This document shows positions 17,284 through 39,609 of a DNA stretch of 39,609 bases, piece after piece. Location: the NCBI GenBank assembly GCA_017411385.1, contig JAFQQF010000010.1:1-39609 (forward strand), given 5' to 3'. The stretch is from Ruminococcus sp. GTDB lineage: Bacteria; Bacillota; Clostridia; Oscillospirales; Acutalibacteraceae. Both the position numbers and the translations under genes were made by a program. Numbering within the stretch: position 1 is the stretch's first letter; each line of letters begins with the position of its first letter. The notes beneath the pieces were generated by a model. The model was given only the letters and a program-made list of their open reading frames with translations, did not search any database and was not told where the DNA came from.

Positions 17284-17538
17284 CAGTTCACCGGACTGTT
17301 TTCTTAAGCCTCTCAGGGTTCGAAGTCCCTCCATTTCTGCATAACTGTTGCGAAGCAATACACCGTTTGTGCAAAGCACAACACTGTTTGCCGAAAGCAA
17401 CTTCATTTTTGTGCCCGCTTCGCGAACAACGATGTTTTCGCAATGCTCGAAATGATGTTTGCAACTATGTTGCAAAACGATGTTGTGTCCTGCGTACACA
17501 AACACAAAGAGCAAGTCTATCGACTTGCTCTTTCTTTT
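17284..17538 (+). repeat. Long hairpin-rich intergenic repeat, copy 1
   Basis: About 255 bp that recur with high similarity and in the same orientation at 19675-19935. The unit is packed with small palindromes: AGTTC-acc-GGACT, GTTGC-gaa-GCAAT (17347-17359), TTGTGC-aaa-GCACAA, GTTTGC..GCAAC, CGCTTCGCG and GCAAC-tat-GTTGC. It ends in a 12-bp terminator-like stem. Frames are open in places, but differences between the copies break the frame while keeping stems, so I read it as non-coding. The ACT-metallo-beta-lactamase gene stop lies 82 bp to the right. Confidence 0.85.
17506..17538. terminator. Terminator-like stem at the end of repeat copy 1
   Basis: AAAGAGCAAGTC / GACTTGCTCTTT, 12-bp stem with 4-nt loop, then TCTTTT on the plus strand. 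On the minus strand it could end the ACT-MBL/MaoC operon, although the U tract there is weak. The same stem closes copy 2 at 19903-19930. Confidence 0.65.
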
Positions 17539-17619
17539 GGAAACGTAGTACAAATCCAAAACCTTTTAAAATCTCGACCTATATGTTCGAACTTATACAT
17601 ATTAATTAAGCTACATTTT

Positions 17620-19056
17620 TTACGAATTTACAGAATAGTCTTTTTTGAATCCATGTGCGCCGAAAATTTGCCACTCTCCAACACCAAGTCGCCCTATAAT
17701 GGCTTTCCGCTCTTCAGCGCAAAGCTTAGGATCGGTATCTACGGAAGTCATCAAAATAGGTGCGTATTGATTATACTCAGCTTGTTCGGGTGTTAATCCA
17801 TGCACATTAATATATATATCGCCGGTAATAGCGATGTGCTTAGCATATTCAATCAATACAATTTCACCGGGTAAATGACCTCCCTTTCCTTCATAAACCT
17901 CAAAATGCAATTCTTCAAAATCAAAGAATCCGATTTGAGTAAGAGGTTCAGTCAAATTTTCAATATCATTCCACATGCTCTTTATTTTATCGGGATTCGT
18001 TACTTTATAAGAGGTAAGTATTTTACAGATATTGATATATGGCCTATGCAGAGGATTCTTTTCTCTGTAACCGTCATTACCAAGATATTCATTTTTTAAG
18101 CATAGAGCCGTTTTAGTGCTCGCTATTATTTCATCAAACAACGGCAGCAAACCACAGTGGTCAACATCAGCATGAGTTACTAGGATAGTTTTCTTAATCT
18201 CATCAAAGTTGGGAACAATCTTCTGTATAACTTCAAGCATTTCATCGCTGTAACAAGCATATCCGCTATCAACAAACAATACCTTATCATTGCTTTTAAT
18301 AATGATTGTGTTGCTACCGCAAGGAGGCTCTATAAGAATAAATTCCGTGTTATCAGAAATTCTATGAGTGCTGACTCTCGGTGCGAAAGCTTTTCCTTTT
18401 GAAGCACCAAGCAATTCGGCAAACCTGCTAATACTATCAAATGTTCTGTATGGAGATAGTCCTTGCTCATCAAGTGTTTGCATCGCAAGATTAACGTGTA
18501 CCAATAGTTCACGACTGATTTTTTCGGGAAGCCCCACGGTTTGAGCCAACCCCATAACATAAGTATTATAAAAAATACTATTGTCATACACCTTCTCCGA
18601 GCTGTTATAATTAATCACACGAACCTTACACAGCTTTTCTGCCTCCAAAAGAAAATCGGAAATTTTATCAATATCCTCAACATATAAGCCCATCTTAAAA
18701 TATTGATAATCTGTGCCATTTTCTTGAGAGCTGATATAAGAAATATTAAAGTTAAAATCATTGATAAGTGACAAGACATTTGTAACACTGCCGGGCTTAT
18801 CCTCAAGACAAAACTCAATTAACACAATGCTTGTCTTATTTGCATCACTTTGAAGATATCCGATTTTTTTCAGTTCAATATCCGCCTTATTTAACTGTTC
18901 TTCCGTTCCTTCAGCATCAATAAAAAGAGTATTCAAGTCAACGGCTTTGTTATAGCTTACACGGGTAATATTAATTCCCAAAGCAGAAAAGCATTTGCTT
19001 GCCTTCAAAAACGCACCTATATGGTTTGGCATAGACGTTACATAAGTCTTTTTCAA
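17620..19056 (-). CDS. ACT-domain / metallo-beta-lactamase-fold fusion protein
   Basis: 478 residues. Residues ~4-68 and ~75-150 are two tandem ACT-like ligand-binding domains (MPNHIGAFLKASKCFSALGINITRVSYN; VLIEFCLEDKPGSVTNVLSL). Residues ~225-475 are a metallo-beta-lactamase fold with THADVDHCG (H295, D297, D299, H300), GGHLPGE (H394), TGDIYI (D413) and GAHGF (H468). The first motif is HxDxDH, with Asp for the usual second His; this variant is known from ComEC-like members. ACT domains usually bind amino acids and regulate enzymes, so a ligand-gated hydrolase is inferred with unknown substrate. It is transcribed 31 nt behind the MaoC-like gene. The region looks AT-richer than the ribosomal genes, and the operon lies between two direct repeats. 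Confidence 0.85.
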   Translation of the reverse strand: MKKTYVTSMPNHIGAFLKASKCFSALGINITRVSYNKAVDLNTLFIDAEGTEEQLNKADIELKKIGYLQSDANKTSIVLIEFCLEDKPGSVTNVLSLINDFNFNISYISSQENGTDYQYFKMGLYVEDIDKISDFLLEAEKLCKVRVINYNSSEKVYDNSIFYNTYVMGLAQTVGLPEKISRELLVHVNLAMQTLDEQGLSPYRTFDSISRFAELLGASKGKAFAPRVSTHRISDNTEFILIEPPCGSNTIIIKSNDKVLFVDSGYACYSDEMLEVIQKIVPNFDEIKKTILVTHADVDHCGLLPLFDEIIASTKTALCLKNEYLGNDGYREKNPLHRPYINICKILTSYKVTNPDKIKSMWNDIENLTEPLTQIGFFDFEELHFEVYEGKGGHLPGEIVLIEYAKHIAITGDIYINVHGLTPEQAEYNQYAPILMTSVDTDPKLCAEERKAIIGRLGVGEWQIFGAHGFKKDYSVNS

Positions 19057-19087
19057 AGTAATTCACCTCATTTATGATACCGTTTCA

Positions 19088-19519
19088 TTACGGCAGTCTG
19101 CATTTTACGATAGCCTCAGTAACATCGGTTAATACAAGTTCTCCGTTCTGATTGTAAGCTTCTATTGTCACCTCAACCAACCCGTTTTTTTCACTTCTTT
19201 TTGCAAGTTTTGTAATGACTGCTTTTCCCGTTAACACATCATCGGCAAACACCGGCTTCACCCATTCAATTTTGGTGGATTTTCCAGCAATCAGTTCCTC
19301 TCCAAAGAAATCAACTTCAAGATATTTTGCCCATACAGACACAAAAGACATCACACCGGGAGCAATCAACCTTCCAAAAGGCGTTTTCTTTGCATATTCT
19401 TCATCAGTATGAAGAGGTATGTTATCATAATCACGGGCAAAATCCATCATTTTTTCTTTCTTAATAACAGCAGGTTTTGTTTTTACCGTCATTCCTACGT
19501 GCAGTTCATCAAAGAACAT
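19088..19519 (-). CDS. MaoC-like hot-dog fold dehydratase
   Basis: 143 residues, a single hot-dog domain. MFFDELHVGMTV is the typical MaoC opening, and ARDYDNIPLHTDEEYAKKT, then APGVMSF, holds the catalytic Asp/His region of (R)-specific enoyl-CoA hydratases. The family hydrates or dehydrates acyl thioesters. The first gene of a two-gene operon with the ACT-MBL protein, so the pair may act in one small catabolic step, but the pathway is unknown. The ribosome binding site is AAGGTG, 7-8 nt from the ATG. Confidence 0.87.
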   Translation of the reverse strand: MFFDELHVGMTVKTKPAVIKKEKMMDFARDYDNIPLHTDEEYAKKTPFGRLIAPGVMSFVSVWAKYLEVDFFGEELIAGKSTKIEWVKPVFADDVLTGKAVITKLAKRSEKNGLVEVTIEAYNQNGELVLTDVTEAIVKCRLP

Positions 19520-19536
19520 ATCGTATCACCTTGGTA

Positions 19537-19565
19537 ATTATATCATAATACATTTTATTAATCAA
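19537..19565 (-). promoter_or_regulatory. Promoter of the MaoC/ACT-MBL operon
   Basis: Minus strand TTGATT (19565-19560), 17 bp, perfect TATAAT (19542-19537). Confidence 0.75.
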
Positions 19566-19598
19566 CGATTTGCGAAGTAAAGCACATTTTCTTTTATC

Positions 19599-19645
19599 TC
19601 TTCTCTCTTATCTATGGAAATGACAAATTTTGAGAAGAGAGAAGA
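19599..19645. repeat. Inverted repeat between promoter and repeat copy 2
   Basis: TCTTCTCTCT (19599-19608) and AGAGAGAAGA (19636-19645) are exact inverted copies with a 27-nt spacer. It may be a weak hairpin or just purine/pyrimidine-biased DNA. Nothing else is seen in 19566-19674. Confidence 0.4.
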
Positions 19646-19674
19646 ACGATAATATAAGAGTTAAGAGTACAAAA

Positions 19675-19935
19675 CAGTCCACAGGACTTTTTCTTAAGCC
19701 TCTCACCCTCTCAGGGTTCGAAGTTCCTCCATTTCTGCATAATTGTTGCGAAGCAACACATCGTTTGTGCAAAGCACAACACTGTTTGCCTAAGGCAACT
19801 CCATTTTGTGTCCGCTTCGCGAACAACGATGTTCTCGCAATGCTCGAAAAGATGTTTGCAACTATGTTGCAAAACGATGTTGTATCCTGCGCACACAAAC
19901 ACAAAGAGCAAGTCTGTCGACTTGCTCTTTCTTTT
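19675..19935 (+). repeat. Long hairpin-rich intergenic repeat, copy 2
   Basis: Same unit and orientation as 17284-17538, with scattered substitutions, small indels and an extra 8-bp tandem duplication (CTCTCACC) near the left end. Stems are conserved: AGTCC-aca-GGACT (19676-19688) against AGTTC/GGACT in copy 1, GTTGC-gaa-GCAAC (19745-19757) against GCAAT, and GTTTGCC-taa-GGCAAC against GTTTGC..GCAAC. It lies just upstream of the MaoC operon promoter and 90 bp from the stop of the gene at 20026, so the two copies bracket the MaoC/ACT-MBL operon. Confidence 0.85.
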
Positions 19936-20025
19936 GCGAAAGACTACCTAAACGGAGCAGAATTGGGAGAAAAACTACCCAAAAGTAATGTGCCTATCCT
20001 GTTAGACAAATTGGAATTTGACGAA

Positions 20026-20355
20026 TTAAAAAATACCCTTGTTATATTTAATCATGGCACGAAAACTTATAACAAGTCCAAGAATAATACCAATAATCAA
20101 AACAGCAGTTCCAACTAAAATAAAAATATCGTTTTCAGTATATAGGGTTACAGATGACAGAACACTAAATACGATTATGCCAATACCGACAATAATAGTA
20201 CCCAAGCCCACTTGTTTTCCAAATGGTATTCTATCTTCTTCTGAAATACGACTCCTGTGATATGGATGAAGAGATGATATGTTTCCTCGCATATTTGTAA
20301 TTCCAAGAACAATACATACAACACCTACAAGAAAAGTAACAATATTGCCTGCCAT
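20026..20355 (-). CDS. Small membrane protein with three membrane segments
   Basis: 109 residues. Hydrophobic segments at ~4-20, ~48-68 and ~77-98. A charged loop NMRGNISSLHPYHRSRISEEDR precedes FGKQVGLGTIIVGIGI; this loop pattern recurs in unnamed Firmicutes membrane proteins, but I cannot assign a function. The AGGAGG ribosome binding site is ideal, and a strong promoter at 20392-20420 overlaps the edge of a palindrome array. It is monocistronic, with repeat copy 2 as its downstream neighbour. Confidence 0.75.
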   Translation of the reverse strand: MAGNIVTFLVGVVCIVLGITNMRGNISSLHPYHRSRISEEDRIPFGKQVGLGTIIVGIGIIVFSVLSSVTLYTENDIFILVGTAVLIIGIILGLVISFRAMIKYNKGIF

Positions 20356-20391: not shown

Positions 20392-20420
20392 ATTATATCA
20401 CGCTTTGCTGCGCTTTTCAA
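20392..20420 (-). promoter_or_regulatory. Promoter of the small membrane protein gene, at the palindrome array edge
   Basis: Minus strand TTGAAA (20420-20415), 17 bp, perfect TATAAT (20397-20392). The -35 box borders the first palindrome of the array. Confidence 0.8.
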
Positions 20421-20424
20421 CGAC

Positions 20425-20583
20425 ATATCGCTGGCGCAATATGATATACGGCGTTGCCGTATGATATATTTGCGCTGCAAATATGATATAATATCCGTTC
20501 CTACATACGCGAAGCGTATATCATCGCACGATAGTGCGATATCATATCGAAGATATATCACCCGTTCTGACAGGAACGGATAT
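20425..20583. repeat. Array of six small palindromes with a long enclosing stem
   Basis: Units: ATATCGC-tgg-CGCAATAT (20425-20442, one imperfection), ATACGGC-gtt-GCCGTAT (20446-20462), ATATTTGC-gct-GCAAATAT (20466-20484), ATACGC-gaa-GCGTAT (20505-20519), ATCGCAC-gata-GTGCGAT (20523-20540) and ATATC-gaa-GATAT (20544-20556), joined by TGATATA-like linkers. A 12-bp perfect inverted repeat, ATATCCGTTCCT (20491-20502) with AGGAACGGATAT (20572-20583), encloses the last three. The result would be a branched cruciform or multi-branched RNA. No open frame explains it. Confidence 0.85.
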
Positions 20584-20588
20584 CATTG

Positions 20589-20628
20589 AAAAAAGTCACC
20601 TTTGTCAGTAGACAAAAGTGACTTTTTT
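20589..20628. terminator. Bidirectional terminator downstream of tRNA-Arg
   Basis: AAAAAAGTCAC .. GTGACTTTTTT with an inner TTTGTC-agta-GACAAA pairing. A/T runs on both sides make it work in both directions. Confidence 0.9.
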
Positions 20629-20630
20629 CA

Positions 20631-20707
20631 TGGCCCGCCCGAAGGGATTCGAACCCCCGATCTTCAGAATCGGAATCTGCTGCGTTATCCAACTGCGCCA
20701 CGGGCGG
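20631..20707 (-). tRNA. tRNA-Arg (anticodon CCG)
   Basis: Minus strand: acceptor CCGCCCG pairs with CGGGCGG, D-arm GCGC..AACGC, anticodon stem GCAGA/TCTGA (first pair G.A mismatched), loop TTCCGAT with anticodon CCG, and T-arm GGGGG-TTCGAAT-CCCTT. Discriminator G is followed by an encoded CCA. It decodes CGG. It lies just downstream of the rplQ terminator with no clear promoter of its own, so it may depend on read-through or on an atypical promoter. Confidence 0.95.
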
Positions 20708-39309: not shown

Positions 39310-39386
39310 GGGCCATTAGCTCAGTTGGTTAGAGCAACCGGCTCATAACCGGTTGGTCCGGGGTTCGAGTCCCTGATGGCCCACCA
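39310..39386 (+). tRNA. tRNA with CAU anticodon (elongator Met or Ile2)
   Basis: Acceptor GGGCCAT / ATGGCCC, D-arm GCTC-AGTTGGTTA-GAGC, anticodon stem ACCGG/CCGGT with loop CTCATAA (anticodon CAT), T-arm CGGGG-TTCGAGT-CCCTG, discriminator A and encoded CCA. It is not the initiator, since the first pair is G-C and matched. CAU is shared by elongator Met and lysidine-modified Ile2; the body resembles both, so identity is left open. Own promoter and terminator: a single-gene unit. Confidence 0.95.
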
Positions 39387-39387
39387 T

Positions 39388-39433
39388 ATCAAAAGGCAGT
39401 AACACCAAATGGTGTTACTGCCTTTTGATTTTA
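39388..39433 (+). terminator. Terminator of the CAU tRNA
   Basis: A 19-bp perfect stem (39388-39406 with 39411-39429, loop AAAT) followed by TTTT, directly after the CCA end. Confidence 0.95.
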
Positions 39434-39446
39434 CCCGTAGTGGCGA

Positions 39447-39532
39447 CATCAGGGACTCGAGGCGACTGTGCCGAGGATACAGCGACTTTGCGCTGTATCC
39501 GAAGGTAAAAATGATTCGGTGAATCATTTTTA
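39447..39532. repeat. Palindrome cluster with inverted tRNA 3'-end fragment
   Basis: CATCAGGGACTCGA (39447-39460) is an exact inverted copy of tRNA bases 39365-39378, and weaker similarity continues toward a CCA-like end. It is followed by GGC..GCC, a 10-bp perfect hairpin GGATACAGCG / CGCTGTATCC (39475-39500) and an 11-bp perfect hairpin AAAAATGATTC-ggt-GAATCATTTTT (39508-39532). No gene is seen from 39434 to the window end. Confidence 0.75.
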
Positions 39533-39609
39533 AGGAGAGCGCTGATGAAACTTCTACACGATGCACACCGCAACATGCGAGGACAATAGGCTTTGTATAT
39601 ATGATAGTA

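What the first reader, a model, noticed from the sequence alone, without database searches (positions are those of the whole stretch)
17284..19935. Two direct ~255-bp repeats bracket the MaoC / ACT-metallo-beta-lactamase operon
Copies at 17284-17538 and 19675-19935 lie in the same orientation on either side of a complete two-gene operon, 82 bp from its stop and just outside its promoter. Direct repeats flanking a cassette allow loss, duplication or exchange by recombination, and the cassette looks AT-richer than the ribosomal genes beside it. No transposase or integrase is visible, so this could be a passive repeat-delimited cassette slot.
Basis: partly seen in the sequence, partly recalled or inferred. 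Interest (0 to 1): 0.72.

Follow-up and report, generated by a model that had tools for sequence, protein, structure and literature searches.

The report
Orphan tRNA-trailer repeats around a gene pair
Two near-identical 260-base hairpin-rich repeats really do bracket a two-gene operon that was probably acquired from other bacteria, but their relatives mostly sit just behind transfer-RNA genes, so they look like displaced tRNA tails rather than the ends of a dedicated gene cassette.

Summary
17284-17543 and 19675-19941 align at 243 of 258 positions (94.2%, 4 gap blocks), same orientation, either side of MaoC and ACT-metallo-beta-lactamase (MBL) genes. On the minus strand each reads: terminator hairpin, array of small hairpins with fixed linkers, inverted tRNA T-arm piece, palindrome. 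Elsewhere the array is mostly a tRNA trailer: 15 of 23 arrays examined outside the window start 27-36 bp after a tRNA. The T-arm/palindrome part is the head of a roughly 150-210 bp mini-element at tRNA/tmRNA 3' ends, with copies of that RNA's own 3' end on both sides; an empty/filled site pair shows one insertion. The architecture resembles Rfam Gut-1, but the repeats do not match its model. The operon is accessory and probably horizontally acquired: 3 of 150 genus genomes including this one, closest placed copies (91%) in other genera. It occurs without the repeats (0 of 80 loci), and none of the 23 other arrays was seen as a gene-flanking pair. A 'cassette slot' is not demonstrated. One parallel exists: a regulator/SLOG-like gene pair between mini-element copies behind tRNA-Met in G038.

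The parts
17284..17543 (-). Repeat copy 1 (composite, displaced tRNA-trailer element), 3' of the MBL gene
17506..17533 (-). Terminator-like hairpin of copy 1 (within the inverted repeat 17501-17538)
   Evidence: inverted repeat I2; sequence
17338..17508 (-). Hairpin array of copy 1; linkers AACATCRTTT, then the reverse-complement type
17315..17330 (-). Inverted tRNA T-arm piece (AGGGACTTCGAACCCT on the minus strand)
   Evidence: sequence; compared with tRNA-end elements
17284..17298 (.). Palindromic head of the mini-element (CAGTTCACCGGACTG)
17620..19056 (-). ACT domain + metallo-beta-lactamase-fold protein, 478 aa, patchily distributed
19088..19519 (-). MaoC-like hydratase, 143 aa
   Evidence: directly upstream of MBL in 15 of 80 relatives
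19675..19941 (-). Repeat copy 2 (same composite), upstream of MaoC and 3' of the ORF at 20026-20355
20026..20355 (-). Small ORF (Tetraspanin match below cut-off) between copy 2 and tRNA-Arg; matches in 4 of 161 genus genomes including the own one, the other three weak or 28 aa long
20418..20588 (.). Gut-1-type hairpin array, two opposed halves (20418-20494 plus, 42.6 bits, below the cut-off of 50; 20513-20588 minus, 59.5 bits), directly behind tRNA-Arg
20631..20707 (-). tRNA-Arg (CCG), the RNA gene next to the region

Best explanation
The two repeats are displaced ('orphan') copies of one composite element: a tRNA-trailer hairpin array fused to the head of a tRNA-3'-end mini-element. They lie downstream of tRNA-Arg(CCG)/rplQ, where gene content differs between the species compared. 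Most likely the composite was duplicated there, as mini-elements are in tandem at a number of tRNA genes, and acquired genes (the MaoC-MBL operon, perhaps also the small ORF at 20026) came to lie between tRNA-Arg and the copies. Each copy sits 76-84 bp behind the stop of a minus-strand gene and opens with a terminator-like hairpin, so it probably acts as that gene's terminator. Shown: kinship of the repeats with trailer elements, a mini-element insertion at a tRNA end in a relative, accessory nature of the operon. Inferred: order of events, the duplication step, horizontal acquisition, terminator function. Not shown: exchange of genes between the copies.
For: Array: 15 of 23 homologous arrays outside the window start 27-36 bp after a tRNA 3' end (Thr, Arg, Cys, Tyr, Ser, Ala); the syntenic tRNA-Arg(CCG) of G088 has one directly behind it. 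Stems change while hairpins stay: in one hairpin 5 of 8 pairs have a change on both sides in at least one of 5 sequences (no shuffled control run on this alignment). Head: in 111 of 161 genus and 54 of 300 family genomes, reversed-pattern control 0 in the rows shown; 43 of 86 deduplicated heads lie within 100 bp after a same-strand tRNA/tmRNA, controls 2 (same strand, downstream) and 0 (opposite strand); 20 of 32 in a family sample. Around 26 distinct RNA genes the own 3' end recurs in direct orientation behind the head (own score above every other gene type's in 23 of 26) and the own T-arm recurs inverted before it (19 of 26). Empty (G010) and filled (G028) site at tRNA-Arg(CCG): a 203-bp unit with 16-bp copies of the tRNA end; flanks agree at 51 of 52 bases on the trailer side and over 82 bases on the gene side. 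Of 79 distinct heads, that of G028 tRNA-Arg(CCG) scores best against copy 2 and second against copy 1 among the 12 rows printed. Operon.
Against: Both copies lack the mini-element's tail, and no direct copy of the tRNA-Arg 3' end was detected near them (score 7 in both, reached by 114 and 123 of 300 shuffles), so they are not intact insertions. The closest arrays are not at tRNA-Arg and not in the genus: L347 (G355, tRNA-Tyr, 85% over 162 against copy 1), L345 (G427, tRNA-Tyr, 84% over 175 against copy 2) and the truncated L346 (G427, tRNA-Ser, 93% over 91), ahead of G088 tRNA-Arg (76-79%). The composite may therefore have come from another genus, possibly with the operon (G427, G253 and G356 of genus g94 carry MBL relatives). 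No tandem or single-copy intermediate was seen. 8 of 23 arrays have no tRNA within 60 bp, and 24 of 86 heads have no upstream tRNA in the fetched stretch.
Confidence: 0.6

Rival explanations
1. Repeat-delimited cassette: operon plus one composite entered as a unit by recombination with a composite already present, and can be lost or exchanged the same way.
For: Direct orientation; operon probably foreign; nucleotide homology of the operon to its relatives stays inside the repeats, e.g. L146 17612-19543; the closest arrays also come from other genera, one of which (g94) carries MBL too; in G038 a regulator/SLOG-like gene pair lies between mini-element copies behind tRNA-Met, the distal one a fragment identical at 47 of 48 bases.
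Against: 0 of 80 MBL loci carry the composite within the fetched flanks of at most 6 kb; the composite pair was seen once in all data examined; longest identical run only 33 bp.
Confidence: 0.25
2. Independent insertion: a mobile hairpin element inserted separately behind two neighbouring minus-strand genes; the bracketing is coincidence.
For: Discrete ends; each copy lies behind a gene; related arrays are dispersed in the family (21 of 300 genomes including the own one, 18 of 135 genera; a lower bound because at most two candidates per genome were scored).
Against: Only two copies found in the genome, 2.4 kb apart, and each is the other's best match by score (209 bits; next 153 for copy 1 and 163 for copy 2), which fits local duplication better. 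Against this: the truncated L346 is as alike (93%) over its 91 bp.
Confidence: 0.12
3. Assembly artefact of a metagenome-derived contig.
For: Such elements often lie near contig ends, so they may disturb assembly.
Against: The copies differ at 15 of 258 aligned positions plus gaps and have different unique flanks on one contig.
Confidence: 0.03

Closest known systems
Gut-1 RNA (Rfam RF01706)
   Same: Array of short hairpins separated by a fixed linker word, often as two opposed halves; of 30 loci, 9 lie 28-44 bp behind a same-strand tRNA, 4 at 231-239 bp and 2 further off.
   Different: Linker TGAAAT/TGATAT instead of CATCRTT; the two repeats give no RF01706 match at E<=5. The 2010 description lists it as 'Human gut only' and among likely non-coding RNAs (PMC2864571, passages seen).
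tRNA-targeted integrative elements with att-like direct repeats (general class, recalled)
   Same: The mini-element lies at tRNA/tmRNA 3' ends between copies of the RNA's last, mostly 13-18, nucleotides and occurs in tandem.
   Different: About 150-210 bp, no gene seen in it; carries an inverted copy of the host tRNA's T-arm; recombinase unknown.
Casposons
   Same: tRNA 3' ends as targets with about 14-15 bp target duplications (recalled; papers seen only as a search listing).
   Different: No casposase searched for; elements far smaller.
23S rRNA intervening-sequence protein (IVP, PF05635) elements
   Same: An IVP-like gene follows 7 of the 23 arrays outside the window on the same strand (Pfam run on two of the seven proteins), and lies in 3 of 30 Gut-1 loci.
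   Different: Here behind tRNA genes, not inside 23S rRNA; none in the window. The gene also occurs in loci chosen for other reasons, e.g. 4 of 80 MBL loci.
Integron gene cassettes
   Same: Gene followed by a structured repeat, units in one direction.
   Different: No integrase among the 18 proteins scanned; attC structure not tested.

Membership tests
Gut-1 (RF01706) | score above the gathering cut-off of 50 bits | tested here: not met
   no match in either repeat at E<=5
Gut-1 (RF01706) | tandem hairpins with a fixed linker | tested here: met
tRNA-trailer hairpin array (named here) | homologous array directly behind a tRNA in other genomes | tested here: met
   15 of 23 within 60 bp, 8 not
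tRNA-trailer hairpin array (named here) | tRNA directly upstream of the window copies | tested here: not met
   tRNA-Arg is 0.7 kb and 3.1 kb away with genes between
tRNA-3'-end mini-element | palindromic head with an inverted T-arm | tested here: met
   inverted match of the tRNA-Arg end scores 11 at copy 1 (shuffle maximum 9) but only 9 at copy 2 (shuffle maximum 10)
tRNA-3'-end mini-element | direct copy of the tRNA 3' end beside the element | tested here: not met
   tRNA-Arg 3' end: score 7 near both copies, no better than shuffles; other tRNAs not tried; present around relatives
gene cassette / genomic island | integrase or transposase | tested here: not met
   none among 18 window proteins; other ORFs not scanned
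gene cassette / genomic island | empty site or other cargo between the same repeats | tested here: inconclusive
   one genome per species; no second pair found
casposon | casposase (Cas1 homologue) | not tested
   no search made
integron cassette | attC site and IntI | not tested
   no search made

The most novel reading that the evidence does not exclude
In this Clostridia family, tRNA 3' ends act like an integron's insertion point: ~200-bp gene-less elements, bounded by copies of the target's 3' end and carrying an inverted copy of its T-arm, insert next to the tRNA, pile up in tandem, and sometimes enclose genes, giving gene-plus-structured-trailer units (here MaoC-MBL; in G038 a regulator/SLOG-like pair). 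Hairpin arrays of the Gut-1 type and IVP-family genes would be parts of the same system.
Probability: 0.2. Interest if true: 0.85.

Novelty: new variant of a known kind. Interest (0 to 1): 0.55.

Why it matters
It explains the repeats without a cassette system and gives genomic context to an orphan RNA family: Gut-1-type arrays, and an array type with another linker, often lie behind tRNA genes. It also exposes a widespread mini-element at tRNA/tmRNA 3' ends (head motif in 54 of 300 family genomes, 32 of 135 genera) that carries an inverted copy of its host tRNA's T-arm. Such elements often lie near contig ends, so they may be under-represented in metagenome assemblies.

Tried and rejected
Array as derived from the trailer of tRNA-Arg(CCG): favoured from three genus arrays (G088 tRNA-Arg 83.5% and 80.8% by global alignment including the terminator), weakened when family arrays at tRNA-Tyr/Ser proved closer. 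Operon breaking assemblies because repeats lie next to it: upstream contig end within 1 kb in 11 of 80 loci, downstream in 3, expected 4.8 per side; L146's first 155 bases show no composite by eye; mild, not pursued. Of 17 matches to the array-start pattern, the 12 with two mismatches were not used as members, because the reversed control pattern gave 14; the five perfect ones lie in three genomes. A covariance model of the array was not built; no tree was built. Literature: palindrome letters gave 0 papers; other searches gave nothing on these elements (listings only). That they are undescribed rests only on these searches and on Rfam. Corrections to my notes: the G028 array lies behind tRNA-Thr, not Leu; MaoC adjacency is 15 of 80, not about 17; the count of Gut-1 loci at 28-44 bp is 9, not 10; the flank test printed as False was a slicing error, redone.

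Full report
Observation. The two repeats are real and distinct: 243 of 258 aligned positions identical, 4 gap blocks, same orientation, the only full copies found in the 2.1-Mb, 62-contig genome. Between them lie MaoC and ACT-MBL genes on the minus strand, AT-rich against the ribosomal genes. Flanking direct repeats of this kind were seen in 0 of 137 random segments.

Anatomy. Read on the minus strand each copy is: terminator-like hairpin; 'TTTGTGTTTGTGT'; an array of small hairpins with linkers AACATCRTTT and then the complementary type; an inverted T-arm piece; a palindrome. In a five-sequence alignment of the array, 13 of 53 predicted pairs have a sequence in which both sides changed and the pair was kept, five of them in one hairpin of 8 pairs. 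Single-strand folding of each copy is stronger than that of dinucleotide shuffles (z -3.4, 0 of 200 as good; z -4.1, 1 of 200).

The array is mostly a tRNA trailer. A perfect match to the array-start pattern occurs five times in 161 genus genomes: twice in the window, twice in G088, once in G028. A family search found array DNA in 21 of 300 genomes including the own one, 18 of 135 genera (at most two candidates per genome scored). I examined 23 arrays outside the window: three in G028/G088 and 20 stretches from the family search. 15 begin 27-36 bp after a same-strand tRNA. Of the other 8, L348 and L359 have what reads as a tRNA 3' end without a complete tRNA directly upstream, L364 has a palindrome-like head between tRNA-Val and the array, L362 is cut by a contig end, and four (L349, L357, L360, L361) have no tRNA in view. 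The array motif is found once in each stretch; L361 has in addition a 31-bp match to the terminator hairpin 0.7 kb away. An IVP-like gene follows 7 of 23; Pfam confirms PF05635 for the two proteins tried.

The head is a second element. The palindromic core occurs in 111 of 161 genus and 54 of 300 family genomes, with no hit for the reversed control in the rows shown. Of 86 deduplicated heads from 70 fetched loci, 43 lie within 100 bp, 47 within 200 bp and 60 within 800 bp after a same-strand tRNA or tmRNA; 24 have none in the fetched stretch. For 26 distinct RNA genes, the gene's own 3' end recurs in direct orientation behind the head (20 of 26 matches end exactly at the gene end, lengths mostly 13-18, three genes have no clear copy), and its own T-arm recurs inverted between gene and head. 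Heads repeat in tandem, mostly 151-344 bp apart, with two wider spacings of 659 (G067) and 1189 bp (G038). G010 (empty) and G028 (filled) at tRNA-Arg(CCG) show a 203-bp unit bounded by 16-bp copies of the tRNA end; the flanks agree at 51 of 52 bases on the trailer side and over 82 bases on the gene side. Of 30 Gut-1 loci, 9 lie 28-44 bp behind a same-strand tRNA, 4 at 231-239 bp, 2 at 404 and 645 bp, and 15 have none upstream; the second group fits one ~195-bp unit between tRNA and array. The Gut-1 search itself had one control genome of 14 ring, below the cut-off. Rfam has no family for these elements in 7 loci searched at gathering threshold.

The operon. MBL relatives occur in 3 of 150 genus genomes including the own one (81% and 73% for the others), but at 91% in genera g65 and g94 (21 of 300 family genomes), and at 92% in an unplaced goat-gut Clostridia MAG (80 of 269 confirmed stretches kept, genus not given). 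MaoC sits directly upstream in 15 of 80. No composite is found in those 80 loci, whose flanks are at most 6 kb and often cut; a head-like motif lies 5.4 kb from MBL in one, L165; no array pattern in G065/G020. Homology of the operon stops inside the repeats, e.g. 17612-19543 in L146. In close relatives the region behind tRNA-Arg(CCG) holds other genes. This fits horizontal acquisition into a variable tRNA-adjacent region; donor and date are unknown, and no tree was built.

Judgement. Its reading as a cassette slot is possible but stands on one case plus a parallel in G038, where an HTH regulator and a YpsA/SLOG-like gene (match below cut-off) lie between mini-elements behind tRNA-Met and a distal fragment identical at 47 of 48 bases. 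The better supported part is what the repeats are: displaced copies of elements that live at tRNA 3' ends. How those elements insert, and why they carry an inverted copy of the host tRNA's T-arm, is open.

Noticed in passing
window 39310-39575: By reading: tRNA-Met near the contig end is followed by a terminator, an inverted copy of its own 3' end and a palindrome of the same layout with another stem (AAAAATGATTCGGTGAATCATTTTT); probably the same kind of mini-element, not counted in the searches.
   Followed up: no
window 20418-20588: Gut-1-type array as two opposed halves directly behind tRNA-Arg(CCG); Gut-1 was described as human-gut-only, here 50 of 161 genus genomes have a match at E<=0.001, 26 over the cut-off.
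   Followed up: partly
L347 3017-3361; also L006, L345, L349, L353, L354, L359: Genes like the 23S_rRNA_IVP family (PF05635) directly behind hairpin arrays, same strand.
   Followed up: partly
L286 511-2312 (G038): tRNA-Met, two mini-elements, HTH regulator and YpsA/SLOG-like gene, mini-element fragment, DUF4180 gene.
   Followed up: partly
L292 (G018) and L321 (G183): Mini-element heads 73 and 72 bp behind tmRNA, so the target is not limited to tRNA.
   Followed up: no
L094 (G010:C88), L095 (G077:C19), L078 (G071:C17): Contigs end about 50-160 bp behind tRNA-Arg(CCG), as if trailer repeats broke the assemblies.
   Followed up: no
L207 4267-4512: A stretch 83% identical to window 20412-20654 (Gut-1-type array and tRNA terminator) 2 kb from an MBL relative in a water-deer MAG.
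   Followed up: no
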